Assembly (NCBI RefSeq): GCF_030388325.1
Contig: NZ_CP103794.1
Span: 3,534,001 to 3,598,000, forward strand
DNA length: 64,000 bases
Direction: 5' to 3'
From: Flavobacterium johnsoniae
Lineage (GTDB): Bacteria; Bacteroidota; Bacteroidia; Flavobacteriales; Flavobacteriaceae
Positions 236 through 18,942 of this stretch are shown here, one piece after another (position 1 is the stretch's first letter; each line of letters begins with the position of its first letter). The position numbers and the translations under genes were made by a program. Under the pieces are notes generated by a model, which searched no databases, was not told the origin of the DNA, and saw only the letters and a program-made list of their open reading frames with translations.

Positions 236-362
236 GATGAAAGCTGAGAATGCCAGTTTTGAAACTGGAAAGGCTGCTCTGCAAAACTGGTACAACAATG
301 ATCGCGGGGAATCGCTTTTTGCGGAACTGTCATTTAATTTTAAAAAAAAGTATGAGGAATAA
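228..362 (+). pseudogene. Orphan C-terminal coding tail in front of the MFS gene
   Basis: An open frame of 44 codons starts at ATG 228 and ends in TAA at 360-362, overlapping the MFS start at 352. Its product (key segments FETGKAALQNWY and ESLFAELSF) looks like the C-terminus of a longer protein, and the overlap is typical of an operon. The part upstream of about 235 is replaced by the reversed oxidoreductase fragment, so the gene appears beheaded. I do not recognise the family; it may equally be a chance frame. Confidence 0.3.
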
Positions 363-1595
363 AATAAAAAAAAGATGGAGTACAGTTTTATTGTTTTCAT
401 CTGCCCAAGCTCTTTTTCAGACGGGCTCTATATTGGTTATGGCTTTATCTGGTCTTGTCGGTTTAGAGATTGCGCCAGAGAAAAGTCTGGCTACGCTGCC
501 CATTGCTATGATTTCAGTTGGAACCGTTCTTATGATGATTCTCGCTTCTCTTATTATTAAAAGATGGGCCAGAGAAAAGCATTTCTTATTGGGACAATCA
601 TCGGCGTGCTTGCGGGAATGCTTTCATTTTACGCTATTTTAAAAAACTCATTTGTTCTATTTGTTTTAGGAAACACCCTTATAGGAGTCTGCCAGGCTTT
701 TACACAATATTATCGTTTTGCAGCCGCCGATTCGGTTCCTCAGAAGATCAAAGGAAAAGCAATATCATTTGTGATCGGAGGCGGAGTTGTGGCCGCAATT
801 GCGGGACCGGCCTTAGCCAGATCTACCCAGAATATTGGCGCGGTTTCATTTGCCTATTCCTTTTTATCCATCTCTTTTTTGAGTATCATTTCTTTTCTGG
901 TTAATTTTGGTCTAAAAGAGAAAAAACGTATAACGGCGCAGCAGAAGGATTTTCAGTTTAAGCAATCAAGACCGCTGGGGGAAATTATGGGACAGAATAA
1001 AACCATTTTGGCTTTATTATCCTCGGCAGTAGGATATTCCGTGATGATAATGATTATGACCGCAACACCTTTGGCAATGCACCACTGCGGCTATTCCGGC
1101 GATGATTCGTCTGTTGTGATACAGTGGCATGTGCTTGGAATGTTTGTGCCTTCTTTTTTTACCGGCACTTTGATTGAGAAATTTGGCACGGGCAGAATAA
1201 TTCTGTCTGGTGTAGGCATACTGTTTTTGCATTTATATCTGGTTCTGACAGGCACTGATTTTCTTCATTTTGTGTCCGGTCTTATCTTTCTTGGAATAGG
1301 CTGGAACTTTATGTTTGTAGGCGGCTCAACTTTATTGTCAAAGGTATATCGAGAAGATGAAAAAGAAAAAGTCCAGGCTTTTCATGATTTTTTTGTTTAC
1401 ATTATCATGAGCATTTCGAGCCTTTCAGCAGGAGTCCTTCTGAGCAGGTGGGGATGGAAAGGAGTAAACATAGCTGCAATTCCAATGCTTCTAATTGTTC
1501 TCGGGGCTTTTGCAATTATGAAAGCGAAACATAAAAAGAGAAAAAAGAGTGGCTGGTTTTTAACGCCAAGAAAGCGAATCATTTCAAACAAATAA
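352..1595 (+). pseudogene. MFS transporter, frameshifted
   Basis: This is a major facilitator superfamily membrane transporter of about 414 residues; the substrate is unknown. Reading from ATG 352 gives the first two transmembrane segments as far as LASLIIKRW. The remaining ten or so segments, starting with RKAFLIGTIIGVLAG, lie in another frame entered near 564. A one-base change in or near the AAAA run at 558-561 would restore the loop between helices 2 and 3 with its basic residues. All other hydrophobic segments and the C-terminal basic tail are intact, so either the lesion is recent or it is a sequencing or assembly slip. A strong terminator follows 2 bp after the stop. Confidence 0.75.
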
Positions 1596-1596
1596 A

Positions 1597-1631
1597 AAAT
1601 GGCGCCAAATTGTCTTCAATTGGCGCCATTT
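1597..1631 (+). terminator. Rho-independent terminator after the MFS gene
   Basis: A perfect 12-bp stem AAATGGCGCCAA (1597-1608) and TTGGCGCCATTT (1620-1631) encloses an 11-nt loop directly after the MFS stop codon. The A- and T-flanked ends make it usable on both strands. Confidence 0.8.
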
Positions 1632-1999
1632 GGCTTTGTGACCTCTACGGGACAAATTACAATAAATTTTTTGGAAGATTTGAAGCGATTGGCGTACTAC
1701 AGGTAGACGCTGTCTTTCATTGGCTTTCTAATTTTGGTTTAGATGTACCGTTGGGGATTGATACAAAAAATATAAAAAACTCAATTGATTTATCGATTTA
1801 GCTAATATATAAATTTACATATTTTAGGGCGAATTTGAAAAGATTGCCGTATTTAAGGCAAAAGTGTCTTTGTTTGGCTCTGTGAATTACTGTCTAGGAT
1901 TTTGGTTTTGTGGAACAAAGTTAATCCCTTTCAATAATGTTTTAAGGGGATTTGTTGTCATGGGAAAATTCTTGTTTGGTTATTTTTTAAAATATTGGT
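1632..1999. other. Intergenic, no supported gene
   Basis: AT-rich stretch. The 63-codon open frame running to 1801 starts inside the terminator stem and resembles nothing I know. A weak inverted repeat, AATCCCTT at 1923-1930 against AAGGGGATT at 1944-1952, may be a terminator for the minus-strand gene beyond or a recombination scar. Confidence 0.4.
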
Positions 2000-4900
2000 T
2001 TAATCCTGAAATGCTGAATTAAGTAAAGAAAGTTCTAAAAAGACAGTAAAGCTTTTAAAAAAAAGTGGATAATCTATTTCTATTTCATTATCATCGATGA
2101 TTTTCAGTAGATTTCCAGGATAGATATACAAAAGATGAAAAGACGATAAACTTTCCATTTTGCCAATCATGGCATTATAGAGAATAAGTTTTATGTTCTT
2201 TCTTATATCTTCTTTAGAAAAAAGTTTAAAAATTTCCGAATCTGCAAGTGCGGAATAATTTTGATTAGCAAAGCCAGCGACATCATACGACTTCAGGGCT
2301 TTTTCCTTAATTAGTGCTTTATCTTCCTGTTTCAGGATTCCCTCTTTGAAACGTGAAGCGCTGTCTGACTTCATTCTTGCAGAGTTCTTGTCCTGCGGAA
2401 AAGTCACAAAATCAACAGCTTTGTTTTTCAGTATTTTTAGCTCAGGTGATTCTTCTTCAACGTTGATCCTGTATCCAAACATTGCCATAACTGACTTTAG
2501 TTCGTTTTCACGAGACGAACCCAGTACATTTGAAACATCTATGTAATCAATCTTCTTATCATAACTGTGAGTTCGTAAAATTCCATTGAGCGCGCGTTGA
2601 AAGATATTGTTTGGCAAAAGATTAATATAGTCAGTGGGCAGATCCAGCCATGAAATGGAGAGATCAGCAGCATCAAAATTTTCATTTATAAAATGGATTA
2701 TGTCCGCCGGATGCTGTTTAATGTATGAAGCTAGCAGCTCACGGTAACCTTTTTCTGAAATATTCTGTATTTGATTAATGAGTTCTATGGAACGCAATGG
2801 ATTTATAAAATCTTTGTCTTGAAATATTTTTAAGGTTACGTCAAGACTGTACATTGAGTAGTCTTTACGGTTGTAATACTTGCACCAGAAATGGCTGATT
2901 TCAGCTATGTTGATTTTTCTTTCCTCATGCAGGGACAGCCTTATGTAATTATGCACCATATCCCTCAGGGCGAAACTTCCCCTGTATTTGTTTTTTTTGA
3001 TAAAATATTCAAGTGTAAGGCACTTGTAATCATTATGCTGCGGATGTAATCCATAAGCATACAGATATTTTTTTGTGGCTTTCAGCATCCAGAGCGCTTT
3101 AAAACTTTCTATATGATATAAAGCAATAAAGTCCTGCAGAATTTTATTGCCAAGGGTAGCATTCCCATTCATATAGTGATCAATTGCACTGAATAGATTT
3201 TTATACTTGCCTTGCTTTATCTGGTGTATATACAGATTTTGCAGGATATAAGGAATTACATCCTGTAAATCGAATTCATCACTTTTAGCCAAAAGCTCAG
3301 TGATTGCTGGTGCTGTAAGTGCTTTGGCATGTTTGCTGAAAAATGATTTCTCTTCTCTGATGTCCTTATCAAGTTCACGATAAAAATACCTGGTGTCGTA
3401 ATGCTGAGAAGCCATAAGATTTAAAATTAACGATGCGTTATTGGTCGTGATGTAATACAGCATTGCAAATAGATAGCCGTCGCTTGTAATATCTTCTTCT
3501 GTATATCCATTATGGATCAAAGCTTTGAGGTAGGTAAATATAACCTGGTCCTGTGTGGAGATATGGTCCCTTTGAACCATGTTAATAATCAGAGATAGGT
3601 CATAAAAGTCTATGATTTCCAGTGCTTCAGGATCTATCGAGCAGAGATTTTCCCTAATCTGAAAATAAAAGGATTGGATGGCTTCAAAATCAATGACATT
3701 TTCCATAAGTTGACGGAACTGTGCGATTGAAATGTATTTTTTAGTGATGTTGTTTTTCTTTGTTTCAGAAAGTTCGTAAAAATTTAATCTCGACAGGAAC
3801 CTTTTTTCGCCTGCCATTATTGAAGTGTAAACCTTGTTGCTTACCTTCTCAAGAGTCTTTGAGTAGTTTATATTTAATTTTCTGAGATAGGTCACAAGAC
3901 TATCATGAAAGAGCGCTACACGGTTGAGACGGATTTCAAATAGATAGGGGTGTTCCTCTATAAATTCTTTTACGATATCACCTAGATCTGAGTCAAGAAA
4001 AAAATCAATTTCAGAATGCATGGTATAGGTGTGGGAACAGAGGAACAGAGCCAGTGCCTGTTTGCCTTTTTCATTGGTAATTATCTGCTGGTAATAATTA
4101 TCAATGCTTTCTAACTGATCATACTGAGGTAGTTTTTTTTCTTTTTTGTAATGCTCTGCAACGTATTTCACCAAAATGGGATATCCCTGGGTGATAGTGA
4201 AAATTTTGCTTGCAATGCTGTATTTCGAAATGTGGTACAGTTCATTTAGCACTTTGGCCGTCTGCTCCAGATTCCAATTTCCTAAAGTATATTTTTCCCA
4301 GGATAACACTCGCTGCAAAGGACGGCTGAGAACGATGGTTTTAGTGCCTTTGTGCAGTTTATCAATGAAGGTGATAAATTTTTCTAAGTCACTTCTGTTG
4401 TAGTTCTCGACATGATCCAGTCCATCTATTATTATTGTTTTATTATTGGTTATAAGATGGTTTAGGATCACCTTTTCATCGCGTTCGCGATAATCACCGA
4501 AGATATTTTTAGATAGTTCACTTAGGAAGTTCTCGTATTTCAACCGTTTGTCATAGTCTTTGTCCTGACTTGAAGTCCAAAAACGGTATAGGATATTATT
4601 GGGGTACTGATCTGTAATTGTATTGACAAAATGGCTTTTTCCGACTCCAGGTTTTCCTTCGATAAGCAGGATATTTTCCACTAAAAGACGCTCACGAGCC
4701 ACATTGACGGTCGTTTCCAGAAGCTCAGTACTGAAGAGTGCTATTGATGGGAGCTGTTCTCTTGATATTTTTAATATTCTCTGGTCAAGTCGGCCATTAA
4801 AAAAGTACTCAATGATATTCTTCCTGTTTTCATCCAGTGCATATAGCTCATGAATTTTTTCTATCATTTCTTTACGGCTCATGGAGATTATAAATACTCC

Positions 4901-5239
4901 TGAAAAATTATAGGCTGGCATGCCAAGTACTTCGCTATCTGGTATAATGTCGATCTCCTTAAAAATGATGATATTGCTGTGACCCGAGAGTTTATGGGAT
5001 TTTCCTTTTATTGAAATCTCATTTCCGGAAACGGCCAGTTTATCAAGGGTCATTGCATCCATATCCTTGATTTGAAAAAAATAATGCTCAAGACCGCAAC
5101 GTATTTTTACATCATCAAAATTGTTTTGAATGGCTGCCTCGATTTCCATTTCATCTATATTTCTTTCAGCATCCATTTTAGCTAGCAGCAGTGATGAGGC
5201 AAGCCATTGGTAAGAGTATCCGATAAAGGCGTATTTCAT
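2000..5239 (-). CDS. STAND-type P-loop NTPase with N-terminal PD-(D/E)XK nuclease-like domain
   Basis: Large protein of 1079 residues from the Met at 5239; a Met at 5284 would add 15 unconserved residues. The N-terminus has GYSYQW (7-12), then FDDV (41-44) and FFQIK (54-58), the G-Y-Q...DD...QxK pattern of Cap4/DUF4297-like double-strand DNA nucleases. A Walker A motif GKPGVGKS (195-202) and Walker B IIIDGLDHV (269-277) follow, giving a NACHT/AVAST-like NTPase core. The remaining 650 or so residues are helical and repeat-like and probably form the sensor. Known proteins of this layout are anti-phage sensors that degrade DNA when activated; here that role is inferred. The gene ends a minus-strand run of nuclease-like genes. 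The sequence AATATTACAC lies shortly before this start and also before the 8270 gene start. Confidence 0.72.
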   Translation of the reverse strand: MKYAFIGYSYQWLASSLLLAKMDAERNIDEMEIEAAIQNNFDDVKIRCGLEHYFFQIKDMDAMTLDKLAVSGNEISIKGKSHKLSGHSNIIIFKEIDIIPDSEVLGMPAYNFSGVFIISMSRKEMIEKIHELYALDENRKNIIEYFFNGRLDQRILKISREQLPSIALFSTELLETTVNVARERLLVENILLIEGKPGVGKSHFVNTITDQYPNNILYRFWTSSQDKDYDKRLKYENFLSELSKNIFGDYRERDEKVILNHLITNNKTIIIDGLDHVENYNRSDLEKFITFIDKLHKGTKTIVLSRPLQRVLSWEKYTLGNWNLEQTAKVLNELYHISKYSIASKIFTITQGYPILVKYVAEHYKKEKKLPQYDQLESIDNYYQQIITNEKGKQALALFLCSHTYTMHSEIDFFLDSDLGDIVKEFIEEHPYLFEIRLNRVALFHDSLVTYLRKLNINYSKTLEKVSNKVYTSIMAGEKRFLSRLNFYELSETKKNNITKKYISIAQFRQLMENVIDFEAIQSFYFQIRENLCSIDPEALEIIDFYDLSLIINMVQRDHISTQDQVIFTYLKALIHNGYTEEDITSDGYLFAMLYYITTNNASLILNLMASQHYDTRYFYRELDKDIREEKSFFSKHAKALTAPAITELLAKSDEFDLQDVIPYILQNLYIHQIKQGKYKNLFSAIDHYMNGNATLGNKILQDFIALYHIESFKALWMLKATKKYLYAYGLHPQHNDYKCLTLEYFIKKNKYRGSFALRDMVHNYIRLSLHEERKINIAEISHFWCKYYNRKDYSMYSLDVTLKIFQDKDFINPLRSIELINQIQNISEKGYRELLASYIKQHPADIIHFINENFDAADLSISWLDLPTDYINLLPNNIFQRALNGILRTHSYDKKIDYIDVSNVLGSSRENELKSVMAMFGYRINVEEESPELKILKNKAVDFVTFPQDKNSARMKSDSASRFKEGILKQEDKALIKEKALKSYDVAGFANQNYSALADSEIFKLFSKEDIRKNIKLILYNAMIGKMESLSSFHLLYIYPGNLLKIIDDNEIEIDYPLFFKSFTVFLELSLLNSAFQD

Positions 5240-5351
5240 ATTTTTTAAGTGTAATATTTTCAAAAAGGACAAATAGTTATCCAAACCATTTTTTATTCAA
5301 TGGATCAACAATTATTTTGGAAGAAATAAAGATGGCAATTTCAACTCTTAT

Positions 5352-6641
5352 TTATTCTGGAAACTCGTTTTCGCTACCTTGGAACAAGGTATGTTTGGTA
5401 AACCATCCCATTCTTTTAACATCCTGCCTGATCATTTCCTCATGATCTGGCTCATACTTCTCAATTTTGTCTATATGGGCGAAGAAAAATCTATGGCTTC
5501 GGTTGGATGATATTAAGATTAAGGATTTGCTTTTATATCCTGTAAATAGATTAACACTTTCTATTGCCAGAGTATTTAGGGTATTTATCATTTCCATATC
5601 CATCTGGTCCGTGTAAAAAGTGAACAGCACACCCACGCCGTCATAATCGCCGAACCGCCTTCCGAAATTTAGTCCAGAAACGTCTTTGTAACGGTTGTGG
5701 AACTCGAAATAGCTTTTGGCGATGGATCGTCTGGTAAGCCTGTCGAATGACAGCATTGCTTTGGCAAGGTTTAACCGCATTGGTGTCAGATTTTGAAGAT
5801 ATTCATTTTTTAGGATTTCATTCTGCACAAAATCGTCGATGAAATAGCTGGCTTTATCTGCTTCTGCCTTATTTTTTACTTGCTGAATATCGGAAAACGA
5901 ATCCCAGTCACCATCGATTTGCAGAAAGATGCCGTTAGAATCATCGTTGAGAAACGGCGGGAAATTTCTAGCATTTTTGAAGAAGTGGGAAAGAAGATCC
6001 TTTTCCGTACCCGAGATCAGAATGTAGTTTTGTGTCAGCTGCTTTTGGAGCGCAAAAAATTCCTTCTGCGTTTCGAGAGGAAAGTCGTACTCGTCGCCTG
6101 GCATGATTATGGTGATCCTCCCCTTAAATAGTTTCTCCCTTTTTTCAAGATAATCTATAAAATCAGGAATCGTATCAAGCTGGCTGATAATAGTTTCGAA
6201 GGAATCTTTATCAAATAAGGTTACATAATCATCGTTTTTCGTGGAATGGTTAAAGGGATAAAATTTTACTCCTTCTCCCAAATTGATTACAATTCGAAAT
6301 ACTTTGGTGATTTGTTCTCTTGGAAAAATCTCCATTTCCCTGTCGGGATGCTTGATCTGCACTTCTGCAGCTCCGAATAAAGTACGGCAGGCACCATGGA
6401 TCTGTTTTACAGCCTTTTCAATAGTGTTGTTGAAATACCTGAAATGATTTCCCTTAAATTCGTAGTTCTTAACTGAGATGACGATTAGCACCGAATTGAA
6501 AATAATCAAGAGGTCGCAGATTTCCTTTTTATCGCCATTTTCATATTTTGGTCCAGGAAAACACCAGTACTTCAAGAACGATCTGTAAGCAAGAGTGTTT
6601 ACAAAATCTTCACCTAATTTGCCTTTGTCTTCAATTATCAT
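5352..6641 (-). CDS. PD-(D/E)XK nuclease-like protein A
   Basis: Protein of 429 residues from the Met at 6641. The frame is open 40 codons further upstream, but those residues are unlike a protein start and the motif GKLGEDF follows soon after 6641. The N-terminal core reads E11, then KKEICDLLIIF with D43, then IVISVK with K58. This matches Mrr-like PD-(D/E)XK folds, with Ser in place of the usual Glu of ExK. The segment EKAVKQIHGACRTLFG and the later motif YLEKREKLF also occur, diverged, in the protein encoded at 7125-8270, so the two are paralogues. The C-terminal half is unrecognised. It lies 112 bp upstream of the STAND gene in the same direction. A defence or DNA-processing role is inferred, not shown. 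Confidence 0.65.
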   Translation of the reverse strand: MIIEDKGKLGEDFVNTLAYRSFLKYWCFPGPKYENGDKKEICDLLIIFNSVLIVISVKNYEFKGNHFRYFNNTIEKAVKQIHGACRTLFGAAEVQIKHPDREMEIFPREQITKVFRIVINLGEGVKFYPFNHSTKNDDYVTLFDKDSFETIISQLDTIPDFIDYLEKREKLFKGRITIIMPGDEYDFPLETQKEFFALQKQLTQNYILISGTEKDLLSHFFKNARNFPPFLNDDSNGIFLQIDGDWDSFSDIQQVKNKAEADKASYFIDDFVQNEILKNEYLQNLTPMRLNLAKAMLSFDRLTRRSIAKSYFEFHNRYKDVSGLNFGRRFGDYDGVGVLFTFYTDQMDMEMINTLNTLAIESVNLFTGYKSKSLILISSNRSHRFFFAHIDKIEKYEPDHEEMIRQDVKRMGWFTKHTLFQGSENEFPE

Positions 6642-6841
6642 AATTTTTTGCTTTTCGAGAACGAAATTTAGTAAAAAAATTAATGGATTTGAATTTAAGT
6701 TTGCGCGGGCTATTCCTATGCTCATGGTAATTCTGATAATTAAAGTAATTCCAATCAACAAGCTAACTGATATTTGGGAAGTATATAGAAACTATACCGT
6801 TGTACTTCGTGGGTCTTCTAACCGAAGTTTTAATTAATTTG

Positions 6842-6849
6842 TATATTTG
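6842..6849 (+). promoter_or_regulatory. Bacteroidota -7 promoter element
   Basis: TATATTTG fits the TAnnTTTG consensus of Bacteroidota primary sigma factor promoters and lies 22 bp before the start codon at 6872. Confidence 0.5.
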
Positions 6850-6871
6850 ATAAACTTAAAATCAAGCAGTT

Positions 6872-7063
6872 ATGAAAGGATTTATATTTGTGCTGGATGA
6901 AGAAAACGTGCCGCACTTTATTAATGTCAATTCTATTGTCACTATTAACGGAACTAACAAAGGAAGGAATGCAGAACTTCATTTAAGCAATTGCTCCATG
7001 TTCACAGCGAAAAAAACGGTAGAGGAAGTAGCCAAATTAATCGAAGCTTCCCTTGAAGACTAG
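6872..7063 (+). CDS. Small FlbD-like or unknown protein
   Basis: 63-residue cytosolic protein, the only plus-strand gene inside the nuclease cluster. It has the pattern of alternating beta-strands plus a C-terminal helix (FINVNSIVTING, AELHLSNC, TVEEVAKLIEAS). This resembles the small FlbD-type fold, in which a short sheet precedes a helix with a VxEVxxLI pattern. A good TAnnTTTG element lies just upstream, so it is probably expressed on its own. It might be a regulator or an immunity-like partner of the neighbours, but nothing in the sequence proves this. Confidence 0.6.
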   Translation: MKGFIFVLDEENVPHFINVNSIVTINGTNKGRNAELHLSNCSMFTAKKTVEEVAKLIEASLED

Positions 7064-7124
7064 TTATATTTTCCATTTATTTTCTGGTTATAGTTGCTTG
7101 GACTTTCTGTTTTGGACATTGTCA

Positions 7125-8270
7125 CTATTTCCTGTATCTATTGTCAGTTTTGCTGACCCTGCTAGCCCTGAATAGATAATTGTCATTCAATAGGTCTTCA
7201 AGTTCTTGGTCAAACACCCACTCATGATGGATGTAATTCCAGAAAATCTGAAAATATTCCTTATCATTTGGATCTCTAAACACAACAGCGCCTATGCATC
7301 TGCTGGCTTTGGAATCATACTTCAGGGCAAATGCATAATTGTCCAGGGCATTTGCCCAATTAGCCGCATTTTTCGAGTGCAGAGGAATAAAAACAAAAGC
7401 GCAGTCGGTTCTTGGAACGTACATTCTATAGGGAGTCGTAAAGTCCTGGTTTTCGGATTCCTGCACACACAATGAGTATTTCTGCTTGAAGGCGGCCAGC
7501 TCAAACCTATTCAGCAGGGCAAGTTCGGCCAAAATTGGATAATATTCGGTTTCATAGTTGGCCATTTTAATATTTTTTGCAAAGTTTTCCATTATACCCG
7601 AAATATCAAATTCTGAAGTTGTCTGGTCGAAATGCAATAGCGAATTGATGTATTTTGCATTGAAATGGTCAGCGTCGGGCGTCTCGAGAAAATGCGAAAG
7701 GAAATATTGTTCGGGAAGGGCTGCAGATGCCCTTTTGTCAAACAGGAACAGGCGTTCCCTGAAGGACAGATATTCATTGATTTCACAAGGTGTTAGGAGC
7801 AGTCTGCAGATCCATGTGTAATCCTCTTCATGAAATAGATGAATCAATCCAATTTCAGTGCTTTCGTAAAACTTGATCTGTCGCAGTTGTTCTGAAAAAT
7901 CCTTTGCCTGATAGATTATGATTTTCCTGCTTGGATTGTCCTTGGCCTGGGCAATGTTAATTTTATGCCCTTTCTCGTTTTCTATGTGGATATCTGAGTA
8001 TTCGCTGAGATATTTCGTGGTGGCTTTTATCTGTTTTACCGCCTTATTCAAAATCTTGCTTTGGAACCATTTTCTATCGTCGCTTGCATCGAGTTCCTTT
8101 TCCTTGATCTGGAAAATAAAAAAAATGTCCTCTATCCAAACCACATTGTCGGCAAACTCCAGCTGCTGTTTGCTGTTTAGCCCCTTGAAATCATTCTTGC
8201 TGAATGTGAATTCCCTAAAAAAGATATTTTGATTTATAAATGAAATTTGATTTTCCGACTGCGTTTTCAT
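7125..8270 (-). CDS. PD-(D/E)XK nuclease-like protein B
   Basis: 381 residues. The N-terminal motif series QLEFADNVVWIED then IFFIFQIKEKE gives E38, D41, Q54 and K56, a complete E..D..QxK nuclease core of the type seen in stand-alone defence nucleases. The segment LNKAVKQIKATTKYL and the later YLSFRERLFLF match equivalent segments in protein A (5352-6641), and the N-terminal cores align. The rest is alpha/beta sequence of unknown fold. It follows the DUF4365 gene by 102 bp in the same direction and may be cotranscribed with it. The start codon directly follows AATATTACAC, also found near the STAND gene start. Confidence 0.68.
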   Translation of the reverse strand: MKTQSENQISFINQNIFFREFTFSKNDFKGLNSKQQLEFADNVVWIEDIFFIFQIKEKELDASDDRKWFQSKILNKAVKQIKATTKYLSEYSDIHIENEKGHKINIAQAKDNPSRKIIIYQAKDFSEQLRQIKFYESTEIGLIHLFHEEDYTWICRLLLTPCEINEYLSFRERLFLFDKRASAALPEQYFLSHFLETPDADHFNAKYINSLLHFDQTTSEFDISGIMENFAKNIKMANYETEYYPILAELALLNRFELAAFKQKYSLCVQESENQDFTTPYRMYVPRTDCAFVFIPLHSKNAANWANALDNYAFALKYDSKASRCIGAVVFRDPNDKEYFQIFWNYIHHEWVFDQELEDLLNDNYLFRASRVSKTDNRYRK

Positions 8271-8372
8271 GTGTAATATTTTTTTTTGATGATGGAATTT
8301 TGAACGGGGAAAGCAAGTTTTTCTTTTAATTATTTCAGCAAGATTTGATGGATGGCGTGCCCAGTAATGAGG

Positions 8373-10202
8373 TTAGTTTAATATATCCTTTTCGCCCTCA
8401 TTTTCATGGGGCATAATCGAAAAATCAAATGCTGGAAAATCCCTGATGGACCAGCGGGGCCTAAAAGCAAGCTCCTCTCTTGAAAGCATCCTGTAGCAGT
8501 CTATTCCCTCTTGCACAGCAAGATCCTGAATTCTGTTCATGTGTGAGGTGTATTTCGCAACGAAGTTTTCATGCGACGTTCCTTGATTGAAAATCGGTTC
8601 ATATTCTTTTCGCAAACCCTCGAATTCAAATGCGTCTATAACTTCAAGTATTTTTTCTTTTGCATCGCAGGCTGCATTCACATTTCCGGAAAATTGCAGG
8701 ATTTCATATTTAAGGATCATGCAGCATAGCATGTTTTCCCTGTATTCATTCTGTTCAAATGCTTCTGCAAGCTTGTCGAGATGATCGCAGTTCCTTCTTA
8801 GCTTCTCGAGCACTGACGGATCAACAGGCTGGAGCAGATCAAAGCTTCTGTATTTCCAGCATGAGAGATAATGAAGGTGAAACGCTTTCTGGTATTCCCA
8901 TTTTATGCCCGCCAGGGTCAAGATGCCGATCGAGATGAAATATCCGCAATTCTCGGCATAATCCACTATGCTGTTAAGACGCCAGCGGAATATTTTTTCA
9001 AGTTCAAGCCATTGCTTAAAGACAGTGGTGTGAAGAAGATTCTGGACTCGTCCCGCAACGTAGACGGAATTCTTTGCCAGATCGCTGAAAAGGATGCTGG
9101 ATTCGGCATCAATGATCTTATTGAAGGCAATGATTCGCAGTCCAATTTTTTTTTCATTTTCAATAACCTTCTGCATGGATTCGTAGAACTTCAGTATTGA
9201 AGAAGCTGGTTCTCCGCTATTGGAAGACAATTCTTCAAAAGCATTCTCAATCTGGAAAAAGGAGCCTGAATCCTCCAGATGGCCGATCTTTTTTACAGCC
9301 CGGTCGTACTGCTCTTTGGATATTATGTCCAAAAGATATCTGGTATTGAGTATAGTATGTTCGATTATCGCCCGACCCTCCGGGTCAAATTCGTCGGAAT
9401 ATTTCTTGGCGCTTTTCAGAAGGTCCATCGCCTTGTAGAGATCCCCGCGCTGAAAATAGGCAATGCCGCAAAAAAGGTAGAATCGGGGAGTTGCTGTGTT
9501 TCTTGGCCAGCTCCTTTTCTCCATTTCAATTACGGTGTCAAAACGGTGTGCATTTACAAGATCCGCGCCAAACTTGTCTATATATTCTATATTTTCCGAT
9601 ACGCTGTATACTATGTTGTCGGAATCAATGAGAAGGCTGCTGGAATTTGGGCTGTTTGACGGAAATCTGTAGCTGTTGATCCTTCTGAGAAGAACTCCGC
9701 TTGCATACGTTTCCTCGTAGATTTCCTGCACTGCCTGTTCAGAAAGAATTTTGGTGAAATAAATCTTCTGCTTTGCTTTTTGCTGCCATTTCCCATTTCT
9801 GCCCTTGATCTGATCCAGAATATTTTTGACGTTTTCGAAGTAGAAACAAGCTGAAGGATGGTGATAAAAAACATAGTAGGCGGGCATGCCGTTATTGAGC
9901 AGGTAGCTTATATTGGATGTTGAGATCTGAAGTCCGAAACTTCCATCGGTTCCCTGTTTGATTTTATTTGTCGCCTTCAGCTGGACAGCAAACCTGTAAT
10001 TGGTGTATACGCTACCTCCTGATGCAGATTCTTTTTTCAGTTCGATATGAAAATCTATCCCTTTGTCACGCATCGTTTCAGATCGTATCTCAAATTTTTG
10101 TACAGGGAACCGCTTCCTGAACAAAACACTTGAAATAGTTTCAAGACTTTCATTTGGATTCACTTTTGGAAGATTTTCGTCGTCGAAGTCCTTGACTGCC
10201 AT
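8373..10202 (-). CDS. DUF4365 nuclease-like domain protein with helical-repeat C-terminus
   Basis: 609 residues. Residues 16-170 match the DUF4365 pattern: ESLETISSVLFR, then DKGIDFHIEL with D50, then YRFAVQLKAT with Q74 and K76. LQISTSNISYLLNNGMPAYY and the FYFENVK segment follow. DUF4365 is a PD-(D/E)XK-related family often found in defence islands. Residues 180-609 are helical. RFYLFCGIAYFQRGDLYKAMDLL is interpretable as a TPR pair, and a longer repeat-like solenoid follows that could bind a partner or ligand. It is the first gene of the minus-strand nuclease group. The target is unknown. Confidence 0.72.
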   Translation of the reverse strand: MAVKDFDDENLPKVNPNESLETISSVLFRKRFPVQKFEIRSETMRDKGIDFHIELKKESASGGSVYTNYRFAVQLKATNKIKQGTDGSFGLQISTSNISYLLNNGMPAYYVFYHHPSACFYFENVKNILDQIKGRNGKWQQKAKQKIYFTKILSEQAVQEIYEETYASGVLLRRINSYRFPSNSPNSSSLLIDSDNIVYSVSENIEYIDKFGADLVNAHRFDTVIEMEKRSWPRNTATPRFYLFCGIAYFQRGDLYKAMDLLKSAKKYSDEFDPEGRAIIEHTILNTRYLLDIISKEQYDRAVKKIGHLEDSGSFFQIENAFEELSSNSGEPASSILKFYESMQKVIENEKKIGLRIIAFNKIIDAESSILFSDLAKNSVYVAGRVQNLLHTTVFKQWLELEKIFRWRLNSIVDYAENCGYFISIGILTLAGIKWEYQKAFHLHYLSCWKYRSFDLLQPVDPSVLEKLRRNCDHLDKLAEAFEQNEYRENMLCCMILKYEILQFSGNVNAACDAKEKILEVIDAFEFEGLRKEYEPIFNQGTSHENFVAKYTSHMNRIQDLAVQEGIDCYRMLSREELAFRPRWSIRDFPAFDFSIMPHENEGEKDILN

Positions 10203-10322
10203 TTTAAAAAGCTTTATCTGTAAAATTAAATAAAAACTCTCATAATTTCATTAGGCGTGAAAAATCATGAAAAAAAACATTATCTGTATTTAGTGTGGGG
10301 ATGTCCGTTAAAATCAAACAAA

Positions 10323-10351
10323 AAACTCAATCCAGGAATTGGATTGAGTTT
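10323..10351. terminator. Bidirectional-looking terminator
   Basis: Perfect 11-bp stem AAACTCAATCC (10323-10333) and GGATTGAGTTT (10341-10351) with a 7-nt loop, with A/T tracts on both sides. It lies between the reductase gene ending at 10474 and the DUF4365 gene starting at 10202 (both on the minus strand), so it most likely ends the reductase transcript. Confidence 0.65.
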
Positions 10352-10473
10352 GATAATTTGTAGTAGAGTGATTGTCTGGTGGCGATATCAATATAAAAAG
10401 CCTGTTGCGGACCAAGCACATTTTTTAATATGCTCTGCGAGAAAGGTATAAGTGCGCACCCTTTTTTAAAGTT

Positions 10474-11007
10474 TCAGCTATTTTTCTCGTATGTAAGCTG
10501 CGCTAATCCCGTTTCAAATGTTTGCGCGGATATAAACTCTAGTCTCTGTTCAGGTCTGCCGTCCTGAAAAAGCCTGGTGCCAGCACCTAAAAGAATAGGA
10601 ATTACAGATATTACAAACCCGTCTATAAGGCTGTGCATCATCAGTTCATTTATGAGTTCGGCACCGCCGTCGCAATAAATATTTTTACCATTTTCATTTT
10701 TTAGATGTTTAATTAATCCGGGGATATCGCCATTATAAAAAATTGTTCTTCCAATTTGGGGCCTTTCGGTTCTTGTAATGACATAAACATCCCGATTCCC
10801 ATTGTCATAATGTGATGGGCCTATTTCTTTGAGAACATAATCATATGTTTTTCGTCCAACTATCACGGTATCGATTTCAGAAATAAAGTCTGCATAGCCG
10901 TAATCCTCGCCCTGCTTTTCCACAAGCTTTAGAAAGCTTAGGTCATCATTTGGCTTTGCAATGTAACCATCTAAACTCATGGCAATGAAAAGTTTTATTT
11001 TTCGCAT
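10474..11007 (-). CDS. Dihydrofolate reductase family protein (RibD C-terminal domain)
   Basis: 177 residues from the Met at 11007, chosen because MRKIKLFIAMSLDGYIA is the canonical beginning of the YwjB/YyaP-type RibD_C family. The open frame upstream runs into the AraC gene and is not family sequence. Visible motifs are SLDGYIA, VGRKTYDYV, DGGAELINELM (NADPH-binding region) and PILLGAGTRLF. The family is a DHFR-like reductase fold; the substrates of these stand-alone copies are mostly unknown. The gene lies 73 bp downstream of the AraC regulator in the same direction and may be its target. Confidence 0.88.
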   Translation of the reverse strand: MRKIKLFIAMSLDGYIAKPNDDLSFLKLVEKQGEDYGYADFISEIDTVIVGRKTYDYVLKEIGPSHYDNGNRDVYVITRTERPQIGRTIFYNGDIPGLIKHLKNENGKNIYCDGGAELINELMMHSLIDGFVISVIPILLGAGTRLFQDGRPEQRLEFISAQTFETGLAQLTYEKNS

Positions 11008-12099: not shown

Positions 12100-13482
12100 A
12101 TGAAAGACTACTTTCAAAATGATGTGCCCATACTGCTAAAGCTGTCAGAGCATAAAGAACTGCTGGACGGCTTTCCTGGTGAAAGCGGAGATTCCCAGTT
12201 TGATGCGAGACTGATTTATAACCAGAGAAGACCTGAAGAGGCGCAGCTGATTATTTATTATAAGCCCTCTGATCATCTGTACCAGAAATTCAGAGCACTT
12301 GCAGAAGCAGGAACCAGCATCCTGGACTTGGTAAATCCTGCATTATCGCCATATGAATGGGTGAACCCGGAGTTTTTTGAGTTTTCTGAAAGCTCTCTGA
12401 TAGATTTTCATGAAACTAATTATTTCGATCATGACAAGAAATCCGTCATACTGGTTCTTCGAAATTTCTGTCTTTTCCAGAATGGAAGGTATGCCGCTGC
12501 CGCAAGATTCAGCCTGGCAGACAATGCCCTTTCCCATCTCACAGGATATATCCAGTACGGCCAGCTTGGAACTTATGATTCAGATGACAAATTCATTGAA
12601 CGGAATCATAACAGATGGACCAGGTTTGGTCCTGTCGAATTTATGCTGTCATTAAGCCATTCCTATAAACAGGGCGAACCAAAAAAGGATTTTGTAATAA
12701 CCAGAGATGCACAGCTGGTTCTAAGGGATGACAGCGAGAAAGTAAAAGATCTGGATCTGCTTTCCCTCGGAGAAGACTTATGCCTGCTGATGTCCCTGTA
12801 CTGGGAGAAGAACATTGATTTTTTCAATGCCCTGCTCAGGGTGAATGATAGGGATAATTATGGCACCAGGGAAGTCTTTAAGCTTTCCGGCGATAACTTT
12901 GATTCCTCGCAGGAATTTCATTTGAAGGACAAATATCAGAATATTTACGATTTTGCAGATTCGGTAAATTTTGAGAAATTCCAAACTTTCAGGGAGCTTA
13001 TACAGGAGGCTGTTCCCAGACTGTTAAGGATAAAGCACCTTGATGATATTTCAGCTTTCATGGTCCTTTACAACATCGTTGAAAAGTTCAGGAATTATTT
13101 TTTAAATGAGCCCTTGGACGGCAGTGCTTTCACTGTAAAGGAAGAATATGTATTTACGGGATCAGAAGGCTCTATTAACAGGTTCATAAAAAAGAAGATA
13201 AAAGAAATCGGTGAAATAGTCGCGGACGCAGATAAACAGGAATTTGATTCTAAAGCTTTTGAGAAAGTATCCTTTATTAAAAAGACCGGCCTTATCGATC
13301 AGTTTGAGGGTTTTATAAAATATCTCAATCTGGATCCGGACGATTATGATGTGGAATTTGGCCAGCTTATTAAAGCCAGAAACCTCATTTATCATGGAAA
13401 TCCGCCCGACAGGGATTTATCGCTGTGTAATAAGGAGCTTAAAGCGCTTGTCTATGATATCACACTTGCCATTATTGCCTGA
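12100..13482 (+). CDS. HEPN-type RNase-like protein, predicted defence
   Basis: 460-residue soluble protein. The first 260 residues form a beta-rich domain I cannot assign. The C-terminal 170 or so residues are helical (DISAFMVLYNIVEKFRNYF) and end with KARNLIYHGNPP, where R427 and H432 form the RNxxxH motif of HEPN ribonucleases, placed as in ApeA-like and other abortive-infection HEPN proteins. HEPN enzymes usually act as RNA-cleaving dimers. The gene stands alone, ends at a strong terminator, and lies near the nuclease group at 2-10 kb. Function as a single-gene anti-phage effector is inferred from the motif. Confidence 0.6.
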   Translation: MKDYFQNDVPILLKLSEHKELLDGFPGESGDSQFDARLIYNQRRPEEAQLIIYYKPSDHLYQKFRALAEAGTSILDLVNPALSPYEWVNPEFFEFSESSLIDFHETNYFDHDKKSVILVLRNFCLFQNGRYAAAARFSLADNALSHLTGYIQYGQLGTYDSDDKFIERNHNRWTRFGPVEFMLSLSHSYKQGEPKKDFVITRDAQLVLRDDSEKVKDLDLLSLGEDLCLLMSLYWEKNIDFFNALLRVNDRDNYGTREVFKLSGDNFDSSQEFHLKDKYQNIYDFADSVNFEKFQTFRELIQEAVPRLLRIKHLDDISAFMVLYNIVEKFRNYFLNEPLDGSAFTVKEEYVFTGSEGSINRFIKKKIKEIGEIVADADKQEFDSKAFEKVSFIKKTGLIDQFEGFIKYLNLDPDDYDVEFGQLIKARNLIYHGNPPDRDLSLCNKELKALVYDITLAIIA

Positions 13483-17251: not shown

Positions 17252-17520
17252 AATTTTCAGATAAGTTAGTTAGCAGTAAATTAATGTTTTATCAAGAAAA
17301 GCACCAAATAATGTGCCGTAAATTGCTAGATTTCCACATGTAAAAGATTCATGCACACTTTATTGTCTGAAACGTCAAGTACGGGCACCATATGGCTGGG
17401 ACAGCAGAGATGCTAAGAAAAATTTCTTAAATTCGCCTTAAGTTGCAGGATATCGTGTCCTGTGGTTCTGCTGGACTAATAGCGAACAAAATTTTAAATA
17501 GTAACCTAAAGGACATAATA

Positions 17521-18942
17521 TTGACAACAAAAGAATTCTTAGTGTTTCTACAGCAGGAACATCATTTGATAATAAATCATAAAGACGACTACGGCGAAGC
17601 CCAGACAGGCAAAATTATTTCAATTGATGGAGATTCTGTGAGGTTTTATTGGACCTGTGACGATGAAAAGACAAAAGCACGAGGCTTGGTAACTTATAAC
17701 ATGGACGAATTTAAACAGCAGGTCGATCCATTTGTGATTGTAGACAGAACGTGTACTTTTAGCGATGAAAAGTATGGTAGGCTCCAGAGCATGATAAAAA
17801 ACAACTGGCACAAGGTAATCAATACGATGCATTCCTCCTCCCAGAAAAGGTTAAAGGTTGATGGCTGCATTGATCTATTAGTCAGCGAAATCGGAGTGTC
17901 TAAATTACAGGCTTCAGGGATTATAAAATCTCGCTTGGCCGCGGGCACATTTAAATATGTTAAATTAAAATTAGGCACATATATTGCGCTTGGCATTAAC
18001 GAAATCGCACTAGAAAATAAAAAAAGATATCTTTCTTCGATTTCAAATGAAATCAGAAGCCAGAGCGAGCGTATCAATTATGTCATCAGCCACGGCCAGA
18101 CTGTCGGAAATTACAGGGAGAGGCTTTTCATTTCCGTCCTGCGGAAATATGTGCCCAAAAAATTTCACGTCGCAACAGGATTTATAGAGGGTAGCAGCAA
18201 GCAGATTGATATCATAATTTATGACCAGCACAATTATATTCCAGTTTTTAGGGAAGATGATCTTGTAGTGGTAAAAAAGGAAGCCGTGATTGCCGTAATT
18301 GAAATCAAAACGACATTAAGTTCGTCCACACTTAAAGATTCTCTTGAAGGTATTGACAGAATATGCGAAGGCCCGATGAGTTCTGTTCCTTTTTTCAAGG
18401 GAATTTTCGCTTTTGAAACAGAATGGAACAATAAAACGGCCGCCGATAACATTGCCATATTTTACGATGAGAATAAAATTGACGCCATTCATGAGCATCT
18501 AGATGTGGTATGCGTTCCTGGCAAGATCTGCGCTTTTATAGATTATAATAATCTGGATAATGATGAGTATTCCTGTCCTTCATTGTATACCTTGGAAGAT
18601 GCTAAGGGCATAAGTATAGGGGAGTCCTTTTTCTTTCAAAGGCTATTTTCCTTCATGGAGGTTGAAGTTTCAGCGCGGAAAATTAATGGATTGTATTTTG
18701 ACGTATTGCGTGAAACTGCACATAGACCGCTGCATAAGATATTGACCGATGAAGACTGGACACCATTTCATATATTTTTTACGGAACTCGGCAGCACGGC
18801 AGATTTCGACGCGGATGAATTTGACCAAGCAATGGAAATCAAAAAAAACAACGTCAAGCAGCGCGTGAAAGATGTCAGGGATTGGATGGCTGGTGAAATG
18901 GACAGAAACCAGCTGATAGAAAAGTATAACAGCATATTTTAA
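17521..18942 (+). CDS. DUF6602-type PD-(D/E)XK nuclease-like protein
   Basis: 473 residues from TTG 17521, which has AAAGGA about 10 bp upstream; a TTG at 17443 would add 26 residues. In the longer numbering the nuclease core is NYRERLF (E226), SSKQIDIIIYD (D256) and VIAVIEIKTTL (E287, K289). This is the G..E...QxDIIIYD...EVK pattern of DUF6602, a PD-(D/E)XK family. The N-terminal 200 residues form a separate, possibly nucleic-acid-binding part. There is no methyltransferase neighbour, so it is not a classical restriction system. It could be a lone defence nuclease. Confidence 0.7.
   Translation: MTTKEFLVFLQQEHHLIINHKDDYGEAQTGKIISIDGDSVRFYWTCDDEKTKARGLVTYNMDEFKQQVDPFVIVDRTCTFSDEKYGRLQSMIKNNWHKVINTMHSSSQKRLKVDGCIDLLVSEIGVSKLQASGIIKSRLAAGTFKYVKLKLGTYIALGINEIALENKKRYLSSISNEIRSQSERINYVISHGQTVGNYRERLFISVLRKYVPKKFHVATGFIEGSSKQIDIIIYDQHNYIPVFREDDLVVVKKEAVIAVIEIKTTLSSSTLKDSLEGIDRICEGPMSSVPFFKGIFAFETEWNNKTAADNIAIFYDENKIDAIHEHLDVVCVPGKICAFIDYNNLDNDEYSCPSLYTLEDAKGISIGESFFFQRLFSFMEVEVSARKINGLYFDVLRETAHRPLHKILTDEDWTPFHIFFTELGSTADFDADEFDQAMEIKKNNVKQRVKDVRDWMAGEMDRNQLIEKYNSIF

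What the first reader, a model, noticed from the sequence alone, without database searches (positions are those of the whole stretch)
2000..10202. Cluster of four nuclease-type genes around a STAND NTPase
Seen: four minus-strand genes, each with a PD-(D/E)XK-like core (QIK, QIKEKE, ISVK and VQLK motifs), one of them fused to an NTPase with intact Walker A and B motifs. Known: Cap4/DUF4297, Mrr-like and DUF4365 nucleases, and STAND NTPases, are common in anti-phage systems. Inferred: the set forms one multi-gene or several single-gene defence systems. I do not recognise this order from a described system.
Basis: partly seen in the sequence, partly recalled or inferred. Interest (0 to 1): 0.75.

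Follow-up and report, generated by a model that had tools for sequence, protein, structure and literature searches.

The report
Mosaic island of stand-alone defence nucleases
A Flavobacterium carries four neighbouring genes for predicted DNA-cutting enzymes, probably separate anti-virus weapons collected side by side and not one machine, and three of the four belong to families that the defence catalogue used here does not list.

Summary
Four minus-strand genes at 2000-10202 encode P1 (609 aa, DUF4365), P2 (381 aa), P3 (429 aa from its likely ATG) and P4 (1079 aa). Each has a PD-(D/E)XK-type core whose key residues are conserved in relatives; P4 continues into an intact STAND NTPase and a helical C-terminus. 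A model of P2 matches nuclease domains (Nt.BspD6I, FokI). The best Foldseek matches of the P4 model are the phage sensor Avs3, a STAND protein and Avs4.

The four are not one conserved system. Of 27 P3 loci only F. defluvii DSM 17963, the same island, also has P2 and P4. In Flavobacterium samples P2 (5 of 398 genomes), P4 (3 of 398), P3 (18 of 338) and P1 (5 of 199) are rare and rarely together. Several relatives sit by named defence genes, which differ: Hachiman, Avs1, Gabija, PDC-M65. Best reading: a mosaic defence island of separately acting nucleases, P4 a compact Avs-like sensor-nuclease. P2, P3 and P4 match no dedicated PADLOC model. Nothing was tested at the bench. Two metagenome contigs may carry pairs of these genes, so partial cooperation stays open.

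The parts
8373..10202 (-). P1: 609 aa, N-terminal DUF4365 PD-(D/E)XK nuclease domain (E21, D50, Q74-L-K76) followed by a C-terminal region that looks TPR-like by eye
   Evidence: Pfam DUF4365 E 1.2e-14, 55 bits against cut-off 24.3; residues; relatives
7125..8270 (-). P2: 381 aa, N-terminal PD-(D/E)XK nuclease (E6, E38, D41, Q54-I-K56, Q80), helical middle, C-terminal strand-strand-helix-strand-strand module; superfamily shared with P3
5352..6641 (-). P3: 429 aa from the likely ATG at 6641 (the ORF runs on to a TTG at 6761), PD-(D/E)XK nuclease (E11, E40, D43, S56-V-K58, Q80) with a C-terminal region shared with P2; distant homologue of P2
   Evidence: NERD weak, E 0.03, below the cut-off, 19 of 22 relatives at E up to 1; conservation; bridging genes hit by both the P2 and P3 profiles
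2000..5239 (-). P4: 1079 aa from the likely ATG at 5239 (the ORF runs on to a TTG at 5284), Cap4-like nuclease (D42-D43, Q56-I-K58), STAND NTPase (about 173-447), helical C-terminal region to 1072
   Evidence: Pfam NPHP3_N (27 bits, cut-off 24.8) and AAA_22 just under its cut-off; Cap4_nuclease in 3 of 16 aligned members, best E 0.0042; model pLDDT 78; Foldseek top hits Avs3, a STAND protein and Avs4
4634..4660 (-). P4 Walker A, EGKPGVGKS (residues 194-202)
4412..4438 (-). P4 Walker B region, TIIIDGLDH (residues 268-276)
6642..7124 (.). 483-bp gap between P2 and P3 that contains a 63-aa plus-strand ORF (6872-7063) and splits the array
10323..10351 (-). terminator-like hairpin with a T-run upstream of P1, consistent with a new transcription unit starting at P1 (consensus match only)
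   Evidence: 15 terminator-like sites found in 1600-10600 against a shuffle mean of 7.3 (sd 2.6)

Best explanation
The locus is a mosaic defence island in Flavobacterium defluvii in which four nuclease genes acquired separately stand side by side in one orientation. Each probably acts alone. P4 works like a compact Avs protein: its helical C-terminus binds a phage protein (inferred), the STAND NTPase oligomerises on ATP (inferred from fold and intact Walker motifs), and the N-terminal Cap4-like nuclease domains are brought together and cut DNA, stopping the phage and often the cell (inferred). P2 and P3 are two divergent members of one unnamed superfamily, with an N-terminal PD-(D/E)XK nuclease and a shared C-terminal part that presumably senses or gates; each would cut phage or other foreign DNA on its own (inferred). 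P1 is a DUF4365 nuclease with a TPR-like part, most likely an infection-activated nonspecific DNase (inferred from DUF4365-APAZ enzymes). Shown: domain content, conserved catalytic-type residues, P2-P3 homology, largely independent distribution, and defence-gene neighbours of several relatives. Inferred: nuclease activity, triggers, and any anti-phage effect.
For: Domains and residues. P2-P3 homology: hhalign probability 93.7, E 2e-7 over 345 columns, against E 0.16 and 0.6 for the control pairs with P4; single genes hit by both profiles, e.g. L088 at 1.3e-15 (P2) and 3.1e-34 (P3). Independence: 26 of 27 P3 loci lack P2 and P4 in the DNA held; the 4 other P2 and 2 other P4 Flavobacterium carriers do not overlap; four close P3 carriers (G109, G210, G249, G333) are not among the P2 or P4 matches, 8 of 10 carriers of P1, P2 or P4 have no P3 match (P4 carrier G114, P2 carriers G208, G352, G385 and P1 carriers G096, G142, G058, G076). 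Defence neighbours differ: P2 after HamAB (G175) and 1.7 kb before Avs1ab (G352); P4 near GajAB (G114) and between PDC-M65AB and PDC-S25 (L030); a P1 relative about 6 kb from a GajA (G142); a distant P3-like gene right after GajAB (G178). Mobile settings: some relatives on plasmids. The region is lower in GC (0.35-0.43 over the first 13 kb) than 19-54 kb (0.41-0.58).
Against: No activity or phage protection has been shown. Two pairs of metagenome protein clusters share the same longest-contig length near the top of their lists (P2 with P4, 11,630; P2 with P3, 4,741); chance means within the top 15 of both lists are 0.0035 and 0.0165, though I chose that cut after seeing the ranks and the means over the full lists are 0.39 and 1.19; those contigs could not be read. 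Distant P3-like genes lie about 20 kb from P2 (G175) and P4 (G178), and a P1 relative about 5 kb from P3 (L014). The genus searches scored at most 4 candidates a genome for P2, 2 for P4 and 5 for P3, the genome-contig scan starts from two short peptide patterns, and several P3 loci have short flanks, so some co-occurrence may be missed. Not every relative has a named defence neighbour: none was found for P2 in G208 among the two neighbours tested, and none was tested for P4 in L031. Low GC is not special to the island: 54-64 kb of the window is 0.35-0.43 too. P1 and P3 were not folded, and plain Foldseek for P2 was not significant (best E 0.048).
Confidence: 0.74

Rival explanations
1. P2, P3 and P4, with or without P1, form one cooperating multi-gene system: the STAND protein P4 senses infection and the two related nucleases P2 and P3 are extra effectors.
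For: Same strand and close packing; the full set is present in F. defluvii DSM 17963, 99.9% identical to the window over 16.7 kb; matching contig lengths for P2 with P4 and for P2 with P3 among top metagenome relatives.
Against: 26 of 27 P3 loci lack P2 and P4 in the DNA held; no overlap of P2 and P4 matches in 398 Flavobacterium genomes outside the own genome; spacers of 102, 483 and 112 bp with an opposite ORF between P2 and P3.
Confidence: 0.12
2. Some of the genes are not defence genes but housekeeping or mobile-element nucleases (DNA repair, plasmid maintenance) that happen to lie together.
For: PD-(D/E)XK folds also occur in Holliday junction resolvases such as Hjc and RecU, which are in the P2 match list at low Z; some P2 and P3 relatives sit on plasmids; in five named Flavobacterium loci P3 has a partly conserved chromosomal setting.
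Against: Sparse, patchy distribution, position of several relatives by named defence genes and a STAND sensor architecture in P4.
Confidence: 0.1
3. P1 and P2, and separately P3 and P4, are two bicistronic two-gene systems.
For: Two blocks separated by 483 bp with an opposite ORF; spacers of 102 and 112 bp inside the blocks.
Against: In the other carriers fetched with flanks the gene next to P2 or P4 is a different one, and none of those loci holds P1 with P2 or P3 with P4 side by side.
Confidence: 0.04

Closest known systems
Avs3 and Avs4 (AVAST; STAND nucleases that sense phage terminase and portal)
   Same: For P4: N-terminal Cap4-like nuclease, central STAND NTPase, large helical C-terminus; Avs3 (E 3.8e-9) and Avs4 (E 1.4e-6) are the top Foldseek matches besides one other STAND protein.
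   Different: 1079 aa against solved chains of about 1540 (Avs4) and 2000 (Avs3) residues; no Avs model of PADLOC hits any of the 16 aligned members at E 0.01; no convincing PDB sequence match; VIA-align ranks other P-loop ATPases above Avs3 and fits Avs3 only at rmsd 33; trigger unknown.
DUF4365 nucleases (for example DUF4365-APAZ of short Argonaute systems, PMC10810196)
   Same: P1 has the DUF4365 domain and a Q-x-K motif; passages of that paper name Q62 and K64 as potential active-site residues of TmuRE.
   Different: No Argonaute gene next to P1; the PADLOC Aga_REase match covers only residues 28-160; P1 carries a TPR-like C-terminus (by eye).
NERD and Shedu (SduA) nucleases
   Same: P2 and P3 have the PD-(D/E)XK core; weak SduA_C matches in 5 of 23 P2 members and weak NERD matches in 19 of 22 P3 members. 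A passage of PMC9009780 places NERD in the PDDEXK clan.
   Different: NERD for P3 is below the curated cut-off and P2 itself does not match SduA_C; P2 and P3 share a C-terminal part with its own motif (consensus LITPAEIxEYLxFRE in P2, ELDTIPDFIDYLxKRE in P3).
Nt.BspD6I and FokI cleavage domains
   Different: 9% identity in the structural alignment and no sequence match; the list covers P2 residues 1-195 only, so the rest of P2 was not matched to their DNA-recognition parts.

Membership tests
Avs / AVAST (P4) | STAND NTPase with Walker A and B | tested here: met
   GKPGxGKS and IIDGLDH invariant in 16 of 16 aligned sequences; NPHP3_N 27 bits, cut-off 24.8; STAND and NLR matches to residues 173-447
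Avs / AVAST (P4) | N-terminal effector nuclease (Cap4 or Mrr type) | tested here: met
   DD and QIK invariant in 16 of 16; Cap4_nuclease profile in 3 of 16, best E 0.0042, position not shown; not in the window protein. Weak: met by motif, not by a curated cut-off
Avs / AVAST (P4) | C-terminal TPR sensor | tested here: inconclusive
   Mostly helical to 1072 in the model; whole-chain alignment to Avs3 only with large rmsd; repeats not identified
Avs / AVAST (P4) | Sequence match to a curated Avs model | tested here: not met
   0 of 16 members match an Avs model in PADLOC at E 0.01
Avs / AVAST (P4) | Activation by a phage protein and DNA cleavage | not testable with these tools
   bench only
DUF4365 (P1) | Pfam gathering score and Q-x-K site | tested here: met
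   55 bits against 24.3; QLK kept in all 11 rows, six proteins apart from near-identical copies
SPARDA short-Argonaute system (P1) | APAZ domain and adjacent short Argonaute | tested here: not met
   PADLOC Aga_REase match stops at 138 of 429 model positions; neighbours are P2 and a RibD_C protein
NERD (P3) | Pfam gathering score | tested here: not met
   15.3 bits against 22.1 for the window protein; 19 of 22 members match at E up to 1, best 0.015
Shedu SduA (P2) | SduA_C domain | tested here: inconclusive
   5 of 23 members, best E 0.004; not the window protein
PD-(D/E)XK superfamily (P2) | Core fold with E, D and x-x-K residues | tested here: met
One conserved four-gene system | Recurrent co-occurrence | tested here: not met
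   Only F. defluvii DSM 17963 among 27 P3 loci; genus searches

The most novel reading that the evidence does not exclude
P2, P3 and P4 are a loosely conserved cassette in which a compact Avs-like sensor works with two related members of a new gated nuclease superfamily, swapping partners between islands; the metagenome contigs of 11,630 and 4,741 bp would be further instances.
Probability: 0.1. Interest if true: 0.65.

Novelty: new variant of a known kind. Interest (0 to 1): 0.42.

Why it matters
P2 and P3 define a nuclease superfamily found in Bacteroidota and, at lower identity, on plasmids of Proteobacteria and a cyanobacterium. P4 is a short Avs-like protein, about half the length of Avs3. 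None of the three matches a dedicated model of the 2023 PADLOC library, yet several relatives sit by named defence genes. If active, P4 would be a small model of how bacterial NLR-like sensors couple ligand binding to DNA cutting, and P2 and P3 would add two single-gene candidates to the defence catalogues.

Tried and rejected
Rejected: one obligate four-gene operon (see distribution). Rejected: P1 as part of a short-Argonaute system (no Argonaute gene next to it, no APAZ match). Rejected: a strict P3-P4 or P1-P2 pair, because the neighbours differ in the other carriers fetched. Considered and left open: a trypsin-like protease near P3 in L006 and L014 (recognised by eye), recalling the nuclease-protease pairs of PMC12799240 (outline and opening text seen); only 2 loci, and the nuclease of that paper is of the MBL type, so not followed.

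Led nowhere: viral-contig scans for P3 (one distant locus), P2 (none) and P4 (two) (the P4 loci were used); P4 in plasmids and phages (none); class-wide samples of 295 genomes (own genome only); PDB sequence searches (nothing convincing); searches for the flanking genes in 31 relatives (the left-flank gene is itself accessory, so no empty site was defined); PHROGs (one unnamed family for P3, E 6.4e-8, and a weak helicase-loader match for P4, E 0.004); paper searches on PDC-M65 (none) and on this kind of locus (listings only, nothing that describes the set). The fold list for P4 is filled by the NTPase domain and that for P2 by residues 1-195, so the C-terminal parts were barely tested.

Script fault: the P1 query file was emptied by my own script, so P1 labels there are void; they were redone.
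Full report
What is there. Four minus-strand genes occupy 2000-10202. In transcription order they are P1 (10202-8373, 609 aa), P2 (8270-7125, 381 aa), P3 (likely 6641-5352, 429 aa) and P4 (likely 5239-2000, 1079 aa). The region is low in GC (0.35-0.43 in the first 13 kb, against 0.41-0.58 over 19-54 kb), but so is the other end of the window (54-64 kb, 0.35-0.43). The window matches Flavobacterium defluvii DSM 17963 at 99.95% over its first 16.7 kb, so it is that species or very close to it. Spacers are 102 bp (P1-P2), 483 bp (P2-P3, with a 63-aa ORF on the other strand) and 112 bp (P3-P4). A terminator-like hairpin precedes P1.

P2 and P3 are related. Profile comparison gives probability 93.7, E 2e-7 over 345 columns, while the control pairs with P4 give E 0.16 and 0.6. 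Single genes from other genomes and plasmids are hit by both profiles (L088 at 1.3e-15 and 3.1e-34; also L046-L049, L083 (same gene as L092), L089 and L090; E-values are for the small gene set searched). In an alignment of 19 chosen P2, P3 and bridging proteins the first E, the second E and the D are identical in 19 of 19, the K in 18 of 19, and a distal arginine in 19 of 19. P2 has no PADLOC match and P3 only a weak one to a model named C3a59 (E 0.012); of three relatives of P2 or P3 scanned without a SEC-C domain none matched at E 0.01.

Do they belong together? In the collection of 84,980 species genomes the P3 scan, which starts from two peptide patterns, gave 27 loci. Only L002 (F. defluvii DSM 17963) also holds P2 and P4; the other 26 hold neither in the DNA available, which is up to 10 kb each side and much less for several. 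One of them (L014) has a P1 relative about 5 kb away on the other strand. In genus samples P2 was found in 5 of 398 genomes, P4 in 3 of 398, P3 or P3-like genes in 18 of 338 and P1 in 5 of 199, two of them at only 29-30% identity, own genome included each time. P2 and P4 carriers do not overlap outside the own genome. A search of ten carriers of P1, P2 or P4 for P3 found distant P3-like genes in 2 of 10: in G175, 20.5 kb from P2, and in G178, 19 kb from P4, each on the same contig. That is island-scale clustering, not adjacency. A class-wide sample of 295 genomes had only the own genome for P2 and for P4. These searches score few candidates per genome (4 or 6 for P2, 2 for P4, 5 for P3 in the genus search), so the counts are lower bounds.

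Neighbours elsewhere. P2 follows HamA-HamB (Hachiman) by 56 bp in G175 and lies about 1.7 kb before Avs1a-Avs1b in G352; in G385 a neighbour has a weak mREase_II match (1.4e-7), and in G208 the two large neighbours tested have none. P4 lies one gene away from a GajAB pair in G114 and between PDC-M65AB and PDC-S25 in viral contig L030; in G178 a GajAB pair lies about 20 kb off, and no neighbour was tested in L031. The distant P3-like gene in G178 directly follows that GajAB. A P1 relative lies about 6 kb from a GajA in G142 and next but one to a PifA-like gene in G096. Of 20 chosen neighbours given to PADLOC at 1e-5 had no match. P2 relatives are also on plasmids of Vibrio, Synechocystis and Rhizobium (4 records), and P3 relatives on plasmids of Hymenobacter and Tenacibaculum and, more distantly, Proteobacteria (32 records in all).

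A point against the simple reading. Among the 120 listed relatives of each (of 626 for P4, 422 for P3 and 202 for P2), a P2 and a P4 cluster share longest-contig length 11,630 (ranks 9 and 8), and a P2 and a P3 cluster share 4,741 (ranks 2 and 14); P3 and P4 share none. Jittering the lengths by up to 10% gives chance means of 0.0035 and 0.0165 for such matches within the top 15 of both lists, a cut I chose after seeing the ranks, and 0.39 and 1.19 for the full lists. These contigs could not be opened. They may be real pairs.

How it most likely works. Shown: domain content, conservation, homology and distribution. Inferred: P4 senses a phage protein with its C-terminus, assembles through its ATPase and activates the Cap4-like nucleases. 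A passage of PMC12931631 states that the nuclease effectors of Avs1-Avs4 cut phage and host genomes on recognising terminase, portal or another phage protein. P1 probably acts as a nonspecific DNase once triggered, by analogy to DUF4365-APAZ. P2 and P3 probably cut DNA alone, with the shared C-terminal part as sensor or gate; this is the least certain step.

Novelty. The kinds are known (PD-(D/E)XK defence nucleases, Avs-like STAND nucleases). Dedicated models of the P2/P3 superfamily and of the compact P4 family were not found in Pfam, NCBIfam or PADLOC as searched, and the paper searches listed no description of the set; that library is open-access only. Ordinary as an island, modestly new in its parts.

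Noticed in passing
window 12100-13482 (+): 460-aa protein without Pfam match whose C-terminus reads ARNLIYHG, an R-x4-H motif as in HEPN ribonucleases (recalled); possibly a fifth defence gene of the island.
   Followed up: no
window 6872-7063 (+): 63-aa ORF on the opposite strand between P2 and P3, preceded by TATATTTG, which resembles the Bacteroidota -7 promoter motif (recalled); no convincing family match.
   Followed up: partly
window 17443-18942 (+) and L046:12988-14241: DUF6602 protein about 7 kb beyond P1; a DUF6602 gene also lies about 4 kb from the P2 relative on a Vibrio plasmid.
   Followed up: no
window 250-1595 (+): An MFS transporter gene looks split over two overlapping reading frames at the left edge of the island (by eye).
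   Followed up: no
L005:10001-11311 (F. panacis) and G333: A P3 relative is interrupted by an in-frame stop, so the gene may be decaying there.
   Followed up: no
L040:10226-10813 and L041:5494-6081: A 196-aa protein with a closely similar N-terminus follows P2 in two Flavobacterium genomes but not in the window; possible accessory gene.
   Followed up: no
L043:1851-7487 and L070:3788-8044: Large proteins (1879 and 1419 aa) in the same islands with nuclease-like N-termini by eye and no PADLOC match at 1e-5.
   Followed up: partly
L030:1225-9495: Viral contig with PDC-M65A, PDC-M65B, a P4 relative about 10 bp downstream and PDC-S25 in a row.
   Followed up: yes
L052:5974-7428: A distant P3 relative on a Xanthomonas plasmid is annotated as carrying a SEC-C metal-binding domain.
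   Followed up: no
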